Assembly: GCF_002216685.1 (NCBI RefSeq)
Contig: NZ_CP022353.1
Location: 2,108,001-2,172,000 of the forward strand
Direction: 5' to 3'
DNA from: Vibrio tarriae
Lineage (GTDB): Bacteria; Pseudomonadota; Gammaproteobacteria; Enterobacterales; Vibrionaceae
Length of the DNA stretch: 64,000 bases
Below the pieces are notes generated by a model. That model ran no database searches, had not been told where the DNA came from, and saw only the letters and a program-made list of their open reading frames with translations. Positions 7,421 through 17,142 of the stretch are shown piece by piece. The translations under genes were made by a program, and so were the position numbers. Position 1 is the stretch's first letter, and every line of letters starts with the position of its first letter.

Positions 7421-7429
7421 CTCATCACC

Positions 7430-7447
7430 TGTAATTTATTATTTACA
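7430..7447 (-). promoter_or_regulatory. TyrR box proximal to aroF
   Basis: TGTAATTTATTATTTACA fits the TyrR consensus TGTAAA-N6-TTTACA with one mismatch. It lies nine bases upstream of the aroF start codon, where a bound repressor could block transcription. Confidence 0.7.
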
Positions 7448-7513
7448 CACCTAACAAGGTGAGCTGGAAACTTAAACAGAAAACACGTTAGCAGGCTTTA
7501 AAAACAATGCAAG

Positions 7514-7554
7514 TGTAAATTTAAACCAACATTTAATGTAAATTAAAAATTACA
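7514..7554 (-). promoter_or_regulatory. Adjacent weak and strong TyrR boxes upstream of aroF
   Basis: The strong box is TGTAAATTAAAAATTACA at 7537-7554. The weak box, TGTAAATTTAAACCAACA, is at 7514-7531 with a good left half and poor right half. The two are spaced exactly 23 bp start to start, the usual arrangement of paired TyrR boxes that bind a tyrosine-induced hexamer. Together with the proximal box this gives three sites, the same number reported for E. coli aroF. Confidence 0.68.
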
Positions 7555-7661
7555 CATCTCATTTAATGACACTTGGCACACAAACTGGGGAATAAAGCGT
7601 GTTTTGTTCGCTTTGAGTATCTTAAAATAAGCCGTTTTTCCGCTCAGACGATGGACTGGTT

Positions 7662-9338
7662 ATGGATCTCATCCTCTCATTACTGCAACAGATGTGTGTT
7701 TACCTTGTTCTCGCCTATATGTTGAGTAAAACGCCGATCTTCATTCCTTTACTTAACATTTCTGGTCGGTTTGACCACAAAATCAGTGTTTATGTTCTAT
7801 TTTCGCTGTTTTGCATTATGGGCACCTACTTTGGCCTACAGATCAATGATGCGATTGCCAATACACGTGCCATCGGCGCTGTAATGGGGGGTCTGTTTGG
7901 TGGACCTGTGATTGGTTTTGCGGTTGGCCTCACCGGAGGCTTACACCGCTATACCTTAGGAGGATTTACCGATCTCGCCTGCGCAATTTCCACCACCGCT
8001 GAAGGTTTAATTGGCGGCTTGCTACACACCTATTTGCTGCGCAAAGGCAAAGGGAAATTACTGTTTAGCCCAAGTATTGTCTTTGCGGTGACCTTATTTG
8101 CCGAAATTGTGCAGATGCTGATCATCTTGGTCGTGGCTAAACCGTTTGAGCAGTCTTACGCGCTGGTTTCCACCATCGCCGCGCCAATGATCATTGCTAA
8201 CTCAGTCGGTGCCGCACTGTTTATGAGCATCTTGCTCGATCGCAAAACCATTTTTGAAGAGTATTCCGCGACGTTTTCACGCCGCGCTCTGAATATTGCC
8301 GAGCGTTCTGTTGGTATCCTTGCTGCCGGTTTTAACCCAGAAAATGCCAACAAAATTGCCCGAATCGTGTATGAACAGACCAATGTCGGCGCGGTCTCGA
8401 TCACCGATCGCGAAAAGATTCTCGCCTTTGTCGGGATTGGCGATGATCACCATAAACCGAATACACCGATCAGCTCGCAAAGCACGCTCGATGCGATTAA
8501 TCGCAACGCCATCATCTATCTCGATGGCAAAGAGCATCCTTATCAATGTTCTTTGTCTCCGACCTGCAAACTGGGGTCTGCGTTAATCATTCCGTTGCGA
8601 GCTGGCGATCGAGTGATCGGCACCATCAAGCTCTACGAGCCAAAACGTAAGCTCTTTTCCACCATCAATATGTCAATGGCACAGGGCATCGCCCAACTGC
8701 TATCCAGCCAAATTTTGTATGGCGAATATCAGCAAAAACAAATCCTGCTCTCGCGAGCGGAAATCAAACTCCTGCAAGCGCAGGTTAATCCGCATTTTCT
8801 GTTTAACGCACTCAACACCATCAGTGCGGTGATCCGCCGTGAGCCAGATAAAGCCCGCGAGCTGATTTTGCATCTGTCGCAATTTTTCCGCAGTAACCTC
8901 AAACAGAACGTCGAAACCGTCACTTTGCGTGAAGAGCTTGCCCACGTGAACGCTTACCTCACTATTGAAAAAGCGCGCTTTAGTGACAGGCTCGATGTGG
9001 AAATTGAGATTGATGATGCCCTGCTAGAACGTAATGTCCCCAGCTTCACTTTGCAGCCTTTGGTGGAAAATGCCATCAAACACGGCACCTCTAACCTACT
9101 CGAAGCTGGCAAAGTGCGCATTTACAGTGAAATGGTTGAAGGGGGAATGCGCGTCGTGGTGGAAGACAACGCCGGGCTCTATCAACCACCGAGTGAAGAT
9201 TACGATGGTTTAGGGATGCAAATTGTTCAGAAACGTCTCACCAATAAATTTGGTACACAATCAGGGCTACAGATTGAAGTAGCGCCGCAAGAGTACACGC
9301 GAATGAGCTTTGTCATTCCACAGCAAGGCACTTACTAA
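7662..9338 (+). CDS. btsS: LytS-family sensor histidine kinase, BtsS (YehU)-like
   Basis: Inner-membrane sensor kinase of 558 residues. The N-terminal 5TM-LYT transmembrane domain (about 1-195) carries the family block GAVMGGLFGGPVIGFAVG. A GAF domain (about 220-345) follows, then a His_kinase dimerisation segment with QVNPHFLFNALNT (phospho-acceptor His near 375), and a HATPase domain with NAIKHG and GLGMQIV. Length and partner match E. coli BtsS (561 residues), a high-affinity pyruvate sensor. The response regulator follows after nine bases. Pyruvate as the ligand is inferred from the family. The likely target, a CstA-family transporter, lies 6 kb downstream. Confidence 0.85.
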   Translation: MDLILSLLQQMCVYLVLAYMLSKTPIFIPLLNISGRFDHKISVYVLFSLFCIMGTYFGLQINDAIANTRAIGAVMGGLFGGPVIGFAVGLTGGLHRYTLGGFTDLACAISTTAEGLIGGLLHTYLLRKGKGKLLFSPSIVFAVTLFAEIVQMLIILVVAKPFEQSYALVSTIAAPMIIANSVGAALFMSILLDRKTIFEEYSATFSRRALNIAERSVGILAAGFNPENANKIARIVYEQTNVGAVSITDREKILAFVGIGDDHHKPNTPISSQSTLDAINRNAIIYLDGKEHPYQCSLSPTCKLGSALIIPLRAGDRVIGTIKLYEPKRKLFSTINMSMAQGIAQLLSSQILYGEYQQKQILLSRAEIKLLQAQVNPHFLFNALNTISAVIRREPDKARELILHLSQFFRSNLKQNVETVTLREELAHVNAYLTIEKARFSDRLDVEIEIDDALLERNVPSFTLQPLVENAIKHGTSNLLEAGKVRIYSEMVEGGMRVVVEDNAGLYQPPSEDYDGLGMQIVQKRLTNKFGTQSGLQIEVAPQEYTRMSFVIPQQGTY

Positions 9339-9347
9339 GGGATTAAC

Positions 9348-10061
9348 ATGTTAACTGCATTAGTCATTGACGATGAACGCTTTGCCCGCGAAGAACTCGC
9401 GGAACTCTTGACGGAAAGCGGCCAGATTGAAGTCATAGGCCAAGCCAGCAATGCAATTGAAGGGTTGAAAAAAGTCAATCAACTCAAGCCGGATGTGGTG
9501 TTTTTGGATATTCAGATGCCGCAAATTTCGGGCATTGAGCTGCTGAGTATGCTTGACCCAGAGACCATGCCTGAGGTGGTGTTTGTTACCGCCTACGATC
9601 AATATGCGCTGCAAGCGTTTGAAGATAACGCGTTTGATTACCTACTCAAACCCGTGGATACCGAACGTTTAGCCAAAACCGTGCAGCGTTTGCTGCGCCA
9701 ACATAAGAAAAGTGACTACTCACCACTGACGCAACCGAGCCTAGATCAGCTCCCTTGCACGGGTTTAAACCGAATTGTGCTACTGCCGATTCATGAAGTG
9801 GAATTTGCCTACAGTGACATCAGTGGCGTCAATGTGCAGACTGCGCAGCAAAAAGCGACCAGTCAATTGACCTTGAAGGTGTTGGAAGAGAAAACCGCGT
9901 TAGTGCGCTGTCATCGCCAGTACTTGGTGAATTTGAAAGCGATCCGCGAAATTAAACTGTTAGAAAACGGGCTAGCGGAAATGATTACCCATACGGGTCA
10001 CAAGGTTCCAGTCAGCCGCCGTTATCTTAAAGAGCTGAAAGAGATGCTGGGATTTTATTGA
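9348..10061 (+). CDS. btsR: LytTR-family response regulator, BtsR (YehT)-like
   Basis: Response regulator of 237 residues. The receiver domain (about 1-120) has acidic residues DDE near 8-10, the phospho-acceptor in FLDIQMPQISG (Asp about 54), and conserved Thr and Lys (VTAYD, LLKPVD). The LytTR DNA-binding domain (about 135-237) ends in CHRQYLVNLKAI and VPVSRRYLKELKE. It matches E. coli BtsR (239 residues) closely through both domains. TAAGGG precedes the ATG. E. coli BtsR binds direct repeats resembling ACC(G/A)CT(C/T)A. Six such half-sites occur upstream of the CstA-family gene in this window, so I propose that gene as its target. Confidence 0.87.
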   Translation: MLTALVIDDERFAREELAELLTESGQIEVIGQASNAIEGLKKVNQLKPDVVFLDIQMPQISGIELLSMLDPETMPEVVFVTAYDQYALQAFEDNAFDYLLKPVDTERLAKTVQRLLRQHKKSDYSPLTQPSLDQLPCTGLNRIVLLPIHEVEFAYSDISGVNVQTAQQKATSQLTLKVLEEKTALVRCHRQYLVNLKAIREIKLLENGLAEMITHTGHKVPVSRRYLKELKEMLGFY

Positions 10062-15080: not shown

Positions 15081-15422
15081 TTATTGATTGTATTCATTCC
15101 AACCGCGTTGCCACTCCATACGAAATCGCTGCGCCTGCTCCGTACCTTCACAAATTCCTTCATAATATTGGCCGCTCAAGCCAATTTGATAAGCAACATC
15201 GGGGTTACAATATTGATCTAATCCCTTTTGGTAGCCTTGTTCATAATCGCCAAGTTTGACTGAGCCGAGCGCCATTAAGCTTTTATAGCTCCGCTGAGTA
15301 TGCCCAGTCACGGCATCTTGATAACCGATTTGATACCAATTACCCTCTTGTACTAACTGTGACTCACTCGCAGCACAACCTACAAGCAGCGCTATAAAGC
15401 TCATTACTATCCATTTTTTCAT
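15081..15422 (-). CDS. Small lipoprotein, DUF2799-like
   Basis: Predicted 113-residue envelope lipoprotein. The N-terminal signal MKKWIVMSFIALLVGCA ends in a lipobox (LLVGC) with the lipidated Cys at residue 16. The residue after it is Ala, which does not signal inner-membrane retention. The mature part has repeated aromatic/glycine motifs (YQIGYQDAVTGH, YEQGYQKGLDQYC, YQIGLSGQYYEGIC, WQRGWNEYN) typical of DUF2799 proteins. Function is unknown. It is the first gene of a two-gene unit with the antiporter and diverges from the CstA-family transporter, so its promoter shares the region that holds the six-site array. Confidence 0.8.
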   Translation of the reverse strand: MKKWIVMSFIALLVGCAASESQLVQEGNWYQIGYQDAVTGHTQRSYKSLMALGSVKLGDYEQGYQKGLDQYCNPDVAYQIGLSGQYYEGICEGTEQAQRFRMEWQRGWNEYNQ

Positions 15423-15469
15423 GTTTTACCTTGAGTTAGCCGAACGCATCTTGTTGGTGAAACGAGCAT

Positions 15470-15580
15470 GCCATTGAATCGGGTGTGCTGCCACTCAAAT
15501 TTATACTCAACCGTTTACTCTCACTCTAAACCACTCAATCAAACTAAACGCCGCTTAACTCACCACACGACCACTGACTC
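15470..15580 (+). promoter_or_regulatory. Six direct half-sites at exact 20-bp spacing upstream of the CstA-family gene
   Basis: Octamers starting at 15470, 15490, 15510, 15530, 15550 and 15570 read GCCATTGA, GCCACTCA, ACCGTTTA, ACCACTCA, GCCGCTTA and ACCACTGA. Positions CC (2-3), T (6) and A (8) are invariant, giving RCCRYTNA, and the next bases tend to (A/C)TC. This resembles the BtsR (YehT) half-site ACC(G/A)CT(C/T)A as I recall it. No copy is present one period before or after. The array ends about 10 bp before the expected -35 region of the transporter promoter. I infer LytTR-regulator binding, most simply by the BtsR-like protein encoded in this window. Confidence 0.7.
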
Positions 15581-15589
15581 GGAAAGCCA

Positions 15590-15618
15590 GTGAAGCTCGC
15601 TTATTGATAAATTACTAT
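15590..15618 (+). promoter_or_regulatory. Possible activator-dependent promoter of the CstA-family gene
   Basis: A -10-like TACTAT lies at 15613-15618. The position 17 bp upstream (GTGAAG, 15590-15595) is a poor -35, as expected for a promoter that needs an activator bound at the adjacent repeats. Confidence 0.4.
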
Positions 15619-15657
15619 CCACAGTGAGCTTAATTCATTAACAAAAGGACAAACGCT

Positions 15658-17142
15658 ATGTTGTGGTTTCTTACCTGTGTCGCAGCCCTCGTTGGCGGTT
15701 ACTTTATTTACGGAGCTTTCGTAGAGAAAGTATTTGGCATCAACGAAAAGCGTCAAACCCCTGCCCATACAAAAACGGACGGCGTCGACTATGTACCGAT
15801 GTCCACCCCAAAAGTTTATCTCGTACAACTGCTGAACATCGCCGGTGTTGGTCCTATCTTTGGTCCAATCATGGGTGCGCTGTACGGCCCTGCAGCTATG
15901 TTGTGGATCGTGGTGGGCTGCATCTTCGCGGGTGCAGTACACGACTACTTCTCAGGTATGCTTTCTATCCGTAACGGTGGTGCTTCAGTTCCATCCATCA
16001 CGGGTCGTTACTTAGGCAATGGCGCAAAACACTTTATGAACATTTTTGCCATTGTGTTGCTGCTTCTGGTTGGTGTGGTGTTCGTTTCAGCCCCTGCTGG
16101 CATGATCACTAACCTGATTAACCAACAAACTGACTTAACCGTCAGCATGACCACCATGGTCGTGATCATCTTCGCTTACTACATTCTGGCGACTATCGTT
16201 CCTGTTGATAAAATCATCGGCCGTTTCTACCCACTGTTTGGTGCGCTACTGATTTTCATGTCGGTTGGTTTGATGACGGCGATTGCGTTCTCTTCTGAGC
16301 ACCAAGTGCTGGGCGGATTTGAAATCAGCGATATGGTGAAAAACCTCAACCCGAATGACATGCCTCTGTGGCCAGCTCTGTTCATCACCATCGCTTGTGG
16401 TGCTATCTCTGGCTTCCACGCGACTCAGTCTCCGCTGATGGCACGCTGTATGGAAAATGAGAAGAACGGTCGCTTCGTGTTTTACGGCGCGATGATTGGT
16501 GAAGGCATCATTGCTCTTATCTGGTGTACCATTGCTCTCTCTTTCTTCGGCTCGCTGGAAGCGCTGTCTGAAGCGGTGAAAAACGGTGGCCCAGGTAACG
16601 TGGTTTACGGTGCTTCTTTCGGCCTGCTGGGTGTGTTTGGTGGTGTGATTGCTTTCCTTGGCGTGGTGATCCTGCCTATCACTTCGGGTGATACCGCGTT
16701 CCGTTCAAGCCGTCTGATCTTGGCTGAATACTTCAACATGGAGCAAAAAACACTGCGTAACCGCCTACTGATGGCTGTACCTCTGTTCGTTATCGGTGCA
16801 GTGCTGACTCAAGTCGATTTCGGTATCATCTGGCGTTACTTCGGTTTTGCAAACCAAGCGACCGCAGTCATGATGCTGTGGACAGCCACCGCTTACCTGA
16901 TGCGCCACAACAAACTGCACTGGATCTGTACTGTACCTGCGCTGTTTATGACTACCGTGTGTATCAGCTTCATCCTTAACAGCAGCACGTTAGGTTTTGG
17001 CTTACCAATGCAGATTTCAACCATTGCAGGTGTACTGGCTGCTCTGGGCGCTCTGGCTTATGTCGCGAAAGTGTCAAAAGGCAAAGGCGAAACCGATCTT
17101 GCCGATGAAGAGAAACCGCAAGGCGTAACGAAAACCGCTTAA
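15658..17142 (+). CDS. cstA: Short CstA-family transporter (carbon starvation / pyruvate or peptide uptake)
   Basis: Inner-membrane protein of 494 residues with about 13-14 hydrophobic segments. CstA family blocks are clear: YFIYGAFVEKVFGI near residue 15, QLLNIAGVGPIFGPIMGALYGP near 58, GAVHDYFSGMLSIRNGG near 95, GFHATQSPLMARCMENE, TSGDTAFRSSRLILAEYF and a C-terminal 5TM part with YFGFANQATAVMMLW. It is much shorter than E. coli CstA or BtsT (about 700), so it belongs to a compact subfamily. AAAAGGAC precedes the ATG. A monocistronic unit, closed by a terminator. Pyruvate transport is inferred from the upstream BtsR-like sites; peptide transport is the alternative. Confidence 0.85.
   Translation: MLWFLTCVAALVGGYFIYGAFVEKVFGINEKRQTPAHTKTDGVDYVPMSTPKVYLVQLLNIAGVGPIFGPIMGALYGPAAMLWIVVGCIFAGAVHDYFSGMLSIRNGGASVPSITGRYLGNGAKHFMNIFAIVLLLLVGVVFVSAPAGMITNLINQQTDLTVSMTTMVVIIFAYYILATIVPVDKIIGRFYPLFGALLIFMSVGLMTAIAFSSEHQVLGGFEISDMVKNLNPNDMPLWPALFITIACGAISGFHATQSPLMARCMENEKNGRFVFYGAMIGEGIIALIWCTIALSFFGSLEALSEAVKNGGPGNVVYGASFGLLGVFGGVIAFLGVVILPITSGDTAFRSSRLILAEYFNMEQKTLRNRLLMAVPLFVIGAVLTQVDFGIIWRYFGFANQATAVMMLWTATAYLMRHNKLHWICTVPALFMTTVCISFILNSSTLGFGLPMQISTIAGVLAALGALAYVAKVSKGKGETDLADEEKPQGVTKTA

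What the first reader, a model, noticed from the sequence alone, without database searches (positions are those of the whole stretch)
15470..15580. Six direct half-sites at exact 20-bp period before a CstA-family transporter
Seen directly: RCCRYTNA octamers at 15470, 15490, 15510, 15530, 15550 and 15570, with C2, C3, T6 and A8 invariant in all six and no copy one period further on either side. Twenty bp is close to two helical turns, so all sites face one side of the helix. Known: LytTR regulators bind direct repeats, and E. coli BtsR uses two repeats near ACC(G/A)CT(C/T)A. Inferred: the BtsS/BtsR-like system encoded 6 kb away drives this transporter through a six-site polymeric array. Six sites rather than two would imply steep, cooperative switching and has not, to my knowledge, been described.
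Basis: partly seen in the sequence, partly recalled or inferred. Interest (0 to 1): 0.8.

Follow-up and report, generated by a model that had tools for sequence, protein, structure and literature searches.

The report
Ladder of landing sites for BtsR
In front of a likely pyruvate-uptake gene of a Vibrio, an eight-letter DNA word is repeated six times exactly 20 letters apart; relatives carry the same ladder with two to ten rungs, and the rungs are predicted to be landing sites for the pyruvate-response protein BtsR, which would make this a switch that evolution tunes by adding or removing rungs.

Summary
Six RCCRYTNA octamers lie at 15470-15577 at exactly 20-bp steps, the strongest six-copy periodicity in the window, with no copy one step further out. 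Among 81 Vibrionaceae btsT promoters (own genome included), 80 were scored automatically as in-phase arrays of 2 to 10 sites, 78 with three or more. The array has a rigid core and a loose tail: the two steps nearest the promoter are 20 bp in 155 of 155 direct steps, while outer steps are 21 bp in 33 of 175. The -10 hexamer starts 43 bp from the proximal site in 79 of 80, which puts the -35 in the next 20-bp register. In a sample of 295 genomes of the order, all 45 with a strong array encode BtsR. E. coli K-12 btsT has three in-phase sites, not only the usually quoted two. But three-site LytTR operators are known (RcoM, CoxC), 20 bp is not exactly two turns, and steep switching is untested. New variant of a known kind: an expandable LytTR operator of up to ten sites.

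The parts
15470..15477 (+). site 6 (most distal), GCCATTGA
   Evidence: weakest site, 6.6 bits in the site matrix
15490..15497 (+). site 5, GCCACTCA
   Evidence: 12.0 bits
15510..15517 (+). site 4, ACCGTTTA
   Evidence: 8.6 bits
15530..15537 (+). site 3, ACCACTCA (consensus)
   Evidence: 13.7 bits; third site of the rigid core
15550..15557 (+). site 2, GCCGCTTA
   Evidence: 10.2 bits
15570..15577 (+). site 1 (promoter-proximal), ACCACTGA
   Evidence: 11.5 bits; 43 bp from the -10, a distance kept in 79 of 80 Vibrionaceae loci
15590..15595 (+). inferred -35 position (GTGAAG; weak, family consensus ATGNNN), exactly one 20-bp step after site 1
   Evidence: placed by a 17-bp spacer from the conserved -10; columns 20-22 conserved. 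The generic promoter scan reported nothing here
15613..15618 (+). inferred -10 hexamer TACTAT
   Evidence: TANNNT at +43 from site 1 in 79 of 80 loci
15658..17142 (+). CstA-family transporter, likely pyruvate transporter (btsT/btsU type), 494 aa
   Evidence: Pfam CstA PF02554, 200 bits; 86-99% identical relatives
7662..9338 (+). LytS-type sensor kinase, BtsS-like
   Evidence: Pfam 5TM-5TMR_LYT, GAF and His_kinase
9348..10061 (+). LytTR response regulator BtsR
   Evidence: NF008677 over its cut-off; 53% identical to E. coli BtsR
15081..15422 (-). divergent DUF2799 lipoprotein gene whose upstream region also holds the array

Best explanation
The six octamers are spaced exactly 20 bp apart with the last one 43 bp from a likely -10 hexamer, and they are likely binding sites for the response regulator BtsR, which would switch on the predicted pyruvate transporter gene when BtsS senses pyruvate. 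Inferred mechanism: activated BtsR loads one LytTR domain per octamer, all in the same orientation. The three sites nearest the promoter form a rigid core that places the last BtsR beside the -35, where it would recruit RNA polymerase to a promoter with a poor -35. The outer sites are a loose extension whose number varies between species; they would raise occupancy, most likely cooperatively, and so set the pyruvate threshold or steepness. Shown here: the array, its conservation, the rigid core, the spacing to the -10-like hexamer and the co-occurrence with BtsR. Inferred: BtsR binding in this species, cooperativity, and the role of the outer sites.
For: 80 of 81 Vibrionaceae loci scored automatically as in-phase arrays of 2-10 sites, 78 with at least three. 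Strict sites show 237 pairs at 20 bp upstream of btsT against 0 in each of three controls: reverse strand, upstream 320-640, first 320 nt of the gene. Direct core steps are 20 bp in 155 of 155, outer steps 21 bp in 33 of 175, Fisher p 3e-10, rows not independent. Against V. metoecus, the invariant positions changed in 1 of 24, other octamer letters in 8 of 24 and the spacers in 27 of 60. Array with BtsR: 72 of 79 genomes at E<=0.01 and 45 of 45 at E<=1e-4 (29 of the 45 outside Vibrionaceae, counted by eye), in a sample where 136 of 295 have BtsR over the cut-off. All 29 fetched array loci of the order besides the own genome (the best hits; 16 from other families) lead into a BtsT gene. BtsR is within 10 kb in 79 of 81 loci. 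The E. coli btsT promoter carries the same motif and is BtsR-regulated (PMC10653868, passages). The E. coli btsT (yjiY) reporter behaved in V. harveyi as in E. coli (PMC5552118, section 11 read). The Pfam LytTR model finds two proteins in the genome. In the own genome the only model matches at E below 7e-4 are in this array.
Against: No binding or expression data for this species. 64 of 136 BtsR-positive genomes gave no model hit: some have two sites at 21 bp or mixed 20/21 steps that the model scores poorly, others were not looked at. 7 of 79 model hits lack a BtsR over the cut-off, all weak. In a sample of 274 genomes of the class, five others had matches at E<=0.001 and none of the ten stretches fetched from them encodes BtsT or BtsR, so the pattern alone is not proof of BtsR. 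Two core steps skip a register and were left out of the 155; one of them (L074, 41 bp over two steps) implies a 21-bp step. The model was built from Vibrionaceae arrays and the fetched loci are its best hits.
Confidence: 0.83

Rival explanations
1. Only the two or three proximal sites work, as a standard LytTR operator; the outer copies are redundant or decaying relics of unit duplication.
For: The rigid spacing ends after the third site; registers 1-3 hold a site in 80, 79 and 77 of 80 loci, register 4 in 62, register 6 in 26 and register 10 in 6; site 6 of the window is the weakest; E. coli-type relatives mostly have two or three sites.
Against: Outer octamers keep their invariant letters while spacers diverge; V. 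harveyi, V. jasicida and V. owensii keep ten registers at exactly 20 bp with one or two key-letter misses each.
Confidence: 0.3
2. Another regulator (HapR, CRP or the second LytTR protein of the genome) owns the array.
For: A V. cholerae HapR ChIP-seq peak lies between VC0687 and VC0688, with no HapR site listed for it.
Against: The array follows BtsR across families; the octamer equals the E. coli btsT sites; HapR sites listed in that paper look different; no full CRP site in 15400-15660, best 8 of 10 letters and overlapping site 5.
Confidence: 0.05
3. A neutral tandem repeat produced by slippage, without function.
For: Site number can change by whole 20-bp units (V. harveyi 10, Vibrio sp. 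PID17_43 9) and changed at least 29 times on an 80-tip gene tree.
Against: Spacers vary freely among 65 three-site stretches chosen to be under 72% identical, the four key letters are kept, and register and distance to the -10 are conserved.
Confidence: 0.02
4. Cooperative dimers bind pairs of octamers (three dimers on six sites) instead of one monomer per rung.
For: Two-site operators are the classical LytTR form, also seen in 14 of 25 E. coli-type loci.
Against: No preference for even numbers: 33 even, 47 odd arrays of 80; the LytTR regulator YpdB binds as monomers, in sequence (PMC4847170, passages).
Confidence: 0.25

Closest known systems
E. coli BtsR operator at btsT (yjiY)
   Same: Same octamer, same orientation, same gene family, same regulator family.
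   Different: Usually quoted as two repeats (recalled; original paper not held). The sequence shows three in phase at 20 and 21 bp plus a weak fourth; the SPR oligo 'yjiY YehT bs' in PMC4847170 spans all three. Vibrio arrays run to ten.
V. campbellii BtsS/BtsR-BtsU
   Same: Pyruvate sensing system and its only pyruvate transporter (PMC10653868 introduction, passage). Relatives here: V. harveyi, V. jasicida and V. owensii have 10 sites, V. rotiferianus 9, but V. sagamiensis only 3.
   Different: V. campbellii itself was not among the loci. The primary paper is not held; whether it describes the array could not be checked. PMC5552118 shows deduced motifs, V. harveyi among its species, in a figure that is not held.
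RcoM and CoxC operators
   Same: LytTR regulators on three 8-bp direct repeats with about 20-bp steps; all three repeats needed for efficient CoxC binding (PMC11347149, passages).
   Different: Single-component CO sensors, three sites; CoxC is a repressor.
YpdB at yhjX
   Same: LytTR regulator, sequential and cooperative binding to direct repeats (PMC4847170, passages).
   Different: Two sites.
BldC filaments
   Same: Direct repeats of varying number bound head-to-tail and cooperatively (PMC5859096, passages). Its discussion also says that a response regulator printed as 'AcrA' (possibly the LytTR protein AgrA) can bind multiple tandem repeats; the cited work was not seen.
   Different: MerR-like winged helix, one helical turn per repeat; not a LytTR protein.

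Membership tests
BtsS/BtsR-btsT pyruvate system | BtsR-type LytTR response regulator | tested here: met
   NF008677 379.6 bits, cut-off 246; 53% identity to E. coli BtsR
BtsS/BtsR-btsT pyruvate system | LytS-type membrane kinase next to it | tested here: met
   5TM-5TMR_LYT 201.9 bits
BtsS/BtsR-btsT pyruvate system | CstA-family transporter with the BtsR motif upstream | tested here: met
BtsS/BtsR-btsT pyruvate system | pyruvate responsiveness | not testable with these tools
   reported for V. campbellii by others (PMC10653868, passage)
LytTR direct-repeat operator | 9-11 nt repeats with 11-13 nt spacers (definition in PMC4847170) | tested here: met
   8-nt core plus 12-nt spacer, so core slightly shorter; weak A preference in the flanks
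LytTR direct-repeat operator | two repeats | tested here: not met
   six here, 3 to 10 in 78 of 80 loci
RcoM/CoxC triplet operator | three direct repeats at about 20 bp | tested here: not met
   six sites in the window; the proximal three alone resemble a triplet
BldC-type filament operator | head-to-tail polymer on repeats of variable number | tested here: inconclusive
   variable number and one orientation are met; protein contacts untested

The most novel reading that the evidence does not exclude
BtsR polymerises along DNA as a head-to-tail LytTR filament. A rigid three-site core docks it onto RNA polymerase, and a tail that brings the ladder to as many as ten rungs, gained and lost 20 bp at a time, lets each species tune its pyruvate threshold. 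Because 20 bp falls short of two full turns, the filament would wind round the DNA or overtwist it to 10 bp per turn.
Probability: 0.3. Interest if true: 0.78.

Novelty: new variant of a known kind. Interest (0 to 1): 0.62.

Why it matters
LytTR operators are usually described as two repeats. A promoter family with 2 to 10 in-phase sites, a rigid core and an evolvable tail offers a natural series for asking how site number sets sensitivity and steepness. It also suggests that the model E. coli btsT operator has been read short by at least one site, which is easy to test.

Tried and rejected
Chance: rejected. Further targets in the genome: the next model matches, at C2:823609 and C2:1100849, are two-site pairs antisense inside ORFs that read as membrane permeases, so not taken as targets; the three still weaker matches were not followed, apart from an octamer count for one of them. 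Autoregulation of btsSR: no RCCRYTNA in 7421-7661 on either strand. CRP: no full site (consensus recalled). Generic promoter and terminator scan: nothing in 15400-15700. CstA-like paralogues of E. coli type (L147-L151, 5 of 5) have no in-phase pair, a useful negative. The first anchoring of the proximal site was misled in nine loci by half-sites further downstream; redone, the last being the figures used, with register counts. The pairwise divergence table (48 pairs) defines registers by observed sites, so it leans towards conservation; only the V. metoecus comparison, registered on the window alone, is relied on. The site matrix was built from strict in-phase sites of the same loci, a mild circularity.

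Full report
WHAT IS THERE. The window is part of a 4.12-Mb, two-contig genome; its transporter is 99% identical to that of Vibrio metoecus. The gene order agrees with V. cholerae VC0687-VC0696 as I recall it. The six-copy block is the best periodic block in the window at any period from 9 to 60: 11.66, against 10.23 for the best block elsewhere and 9.42 for the best of 20 Markov simulations. The flanking registers are empty (the downstream one read).

NEIGHBOURS. Upstream at 7662-10061 lie a LytS-type kinase and a LytTR regulator that passes NCBI's BtsR model; the regulator is 53% identical to E. coli BtsR over its length. The array lies between a divergent DUF2799 lipoprotein gene and a 494-aa CstA-family transporter. 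NCBI's CstA equivalog model is far from met (90 bits against 1188), so the transporter is CstA-family but not CstA; pyruvate as its substrate is inferred from V. campbellii BtsU. The Pfam LytTR model finds two proteins in the genome.

CONSERVATION. One scan of the species-level genome collection gave 262 relatives of the transporter, of which the tool kept the best 80. With the own genome this makes 81 loci: mostly Vibrio, with Grimontia, Enterovibrio and one Photobacterium. Strict octamers upstream of btsT form 237 pairs at 20 bp, 23 at 21 bp and 171 at 40 bp. The reverse strand, the stretch 320-640 upstream and the first 320 nt of the gene give no pair at 20 or 21 bp. With a site matrix (threshold 3.5 bits, about 0.26% of random positions), 80 of 81 loci are scored as arrays. 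Site counts are: 2 sites in 2 loci, 3 in 11, 4 in 12, 5 in 28, 6 in 7, 7 in 4, 8 in 9, 9 in 4 and 10 in 3. The one miss, V. fujianensis L057, shows one consensus and two weak sites in phase further upstream, with a TANNNT at the usual distance (read by eye). V. jasicida, V. harveyi and V. owensii have ten consecutive 20-bp registers. Long arrays are not general in that group: V. sagamiensis has three sites and Vibrio sp. AND4 four (group membership recalled).

A RIGID CORE AND A LOOSE TAIL. Counting from the promoter, the first two steps are 20 bp in 79 of 79 and 76 of 76 direct steps, while later direct steps are 21 bp in 33 of 175. Steps over an empty register (23 in all) were left out; two fall in the core, L065 at 40 bp and L074 at 41 bp, and the latter implies one 21-bp step between registers 2 and 4. 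A site is present at registers 1 to 10 in 80, 79, 77, 62, 52, 26, 21, 15, 15 and 6 of 80 loci. The proximal site is followed 43 bp later by TANNNT, a -10-like hexamer, in 79 of 80 loci; the exception, L044, aligns at 42. With a 17-bp spacer, the -35 then begins exactly 20 bp after the proximal site: the ladder is in step with the promoter. The -35 is poor (consensus ATGNNN), as expected for an activator-dependent promoter. The loci are related, so these counts are not independent trials. The spacers, however, vary freely among 65 three-site stretches that were picked to be under 72% identical. Against V. metoecus, the window's key letters changed in 1 of 24, other octamer letters in 8 of 24 and the spacers in 27 of 60 (key against spacer p 2e-4). 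Site number changed at least 29 times on an 80-tip tree of the gene (quick tree, 24 of 77 inner branches poorly supported).

WHO BINDS. A sequence-only model of three sites was run on 295 genomes drawn from the order, and the BtsR family model on a sample with the same handles. Of 79 array genomes, 72 have BtsR over the curated cut-off. The seven others (G062, G071, G079, G090, G105, G136, G181) all have weak hits, E 7.7e-4 or worse. At E<=1e-4 it is 45 of 45, 29 of them outside Vibrionaceae (counted by eye), against 136 of 295 overall. Sixty-four BtsR genomes have no model hit. The 29 array loci fetched besides the own genome, the best hits of 78 other array genomes (13 Vibrionaceae and 16 of other families), all run into a BtsT gene. 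In a sample of 274 genomes of the class, only the own genome and five others had a match at E<=0.001; no BtsT or BtsR was found in the ten stretches from those five. In the own genome the only matches better than 7e-4 are in this array. BtsR lies within 10 kb and on the same strand in 79 of 81 loci; L001 is a short stretch without it and L054 ends at a contig edge.

E. COLI REVISITED. The K-12 btsT promoter has GCCGCTCA, ACCGCTTA and ACCACTCA at -184, -164 and -143, and a weak GTCACTTA at -204. The E. coli BtsT query matched 48 of 295 genomes; 30 loci were fetched. Of the 25 that are 83-97% identical, 10 have three in-phase sites (some with one weak site, threshold 3 bits), 14 have two and one has none; the five remaining CstA-like paralogues have no in-phase pair (counted by eye from its table). 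The two-repeat description of the E. coli operator is recalled; the original paper is not held. The SPR oligo for the E. coli site in PMC4847170 spans all three octamers.

MECHANISM. In E. coli, BtsS senses pyruvate and BtsR activates btsT (PMC10653868, abstract start and passages). The E. coli promoter reporter behaves in V. harveyi as in E. coli (PMC5552118, section 11); the same paper found no BtsR motif in two other species. YpdB, another LytTR regulator, binds two repeats as monomers, in sequence and cooperatively (PMC4847170, passages). CoxC needs all three of its repeats for efficient binding, and the RcoM motif is a triplet (PMC11347149, passages). BldC shows that a regulator can polymerise head-to-tail on repeats of varying number (PMC5859096, passages). 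I infer that BtsR fills the ladder one rung at a time, that the three-rung core docks RNA polymerase, and that the tail sets threshold or steepness. Odd and even arrays are both common (47 and 33), which argues against strict dimer units. At 10.5 bp per turn a 20-bp step leaves 34 degrees per rung, so 'one face' holds only if the DNA is overtwisted or the protein chain winds. A suggestive but unproven link: the strain listed as V. harveyi in PMC5552118 released far more pyruvate (2837 uM) than E. coli (709 uM), and V. harveyi has ten rungs here.

NOVELTY. Ten searches of the open library listed no paper that I recognised as describing a LytTR operator of more than three sites; most listed papers were seen only as titles and abstract openings. 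Against this, PMC5859096 says in its discussion that a response regulator 'AcrA', possibly AgrA, binds multiple tandem repeats (the cited work not seen). The V. campbellii BtsU paper and the original E. coli paper are not held, and the motif figure of PMC5552118 is not held, so an earlier mention of extra sites cannot be excluded. Filed as a new variant of a known kind.

Noticed in passing
window 15423-15657: The V. cholerae intergenic region VC0687<>VC0688, by recalled gene order the same region, has a HapR ChIP-seq peak with no HapR site listed (PMC10328515 Table 1, section 5 read): quorum sensing may also act on this promoter.
   Followed up: partly
L084 (E. coli K-12 NC_000913.3), btsT upstream -204 to -136: The model E. 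coli btsT operator has three in-phase BtsR-type sites plus a weak fourth, not only two.
   Followed up: yes
L152, L157, L159-L161 (G496) and L153, L158 (G490): Outside the order, two genomes carry several clustered copies of similar 20-bp-step repeats (five matches in about 10 kb; two in 2 kb) with no BtsT or BtsR in the fetched stretches; perhaps ends of a mobile element or another regulator's sites.
   Followed up: partly
L132-L146: In a family of small-genome relatives (f27, 2.2-2.9 Mb), 12 of 15 fetched loci have just the classical two sites, at 21 bp; the 20-bp step goes with longer arrays.
   Followed up: partly
window 15081-15422, minus strand: The divergent DUF2799 lipoprotein gene starts 47 bp from the distal site, so the array could also touch its promoter.
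   Followed up: no
L083 (own genome, C1:254634-254924): The only other LytTR regulator found in the genome sits beside a 286-aa ORF that reads like a LytS-type kinase (by eye, no family search).
   Followed up: no
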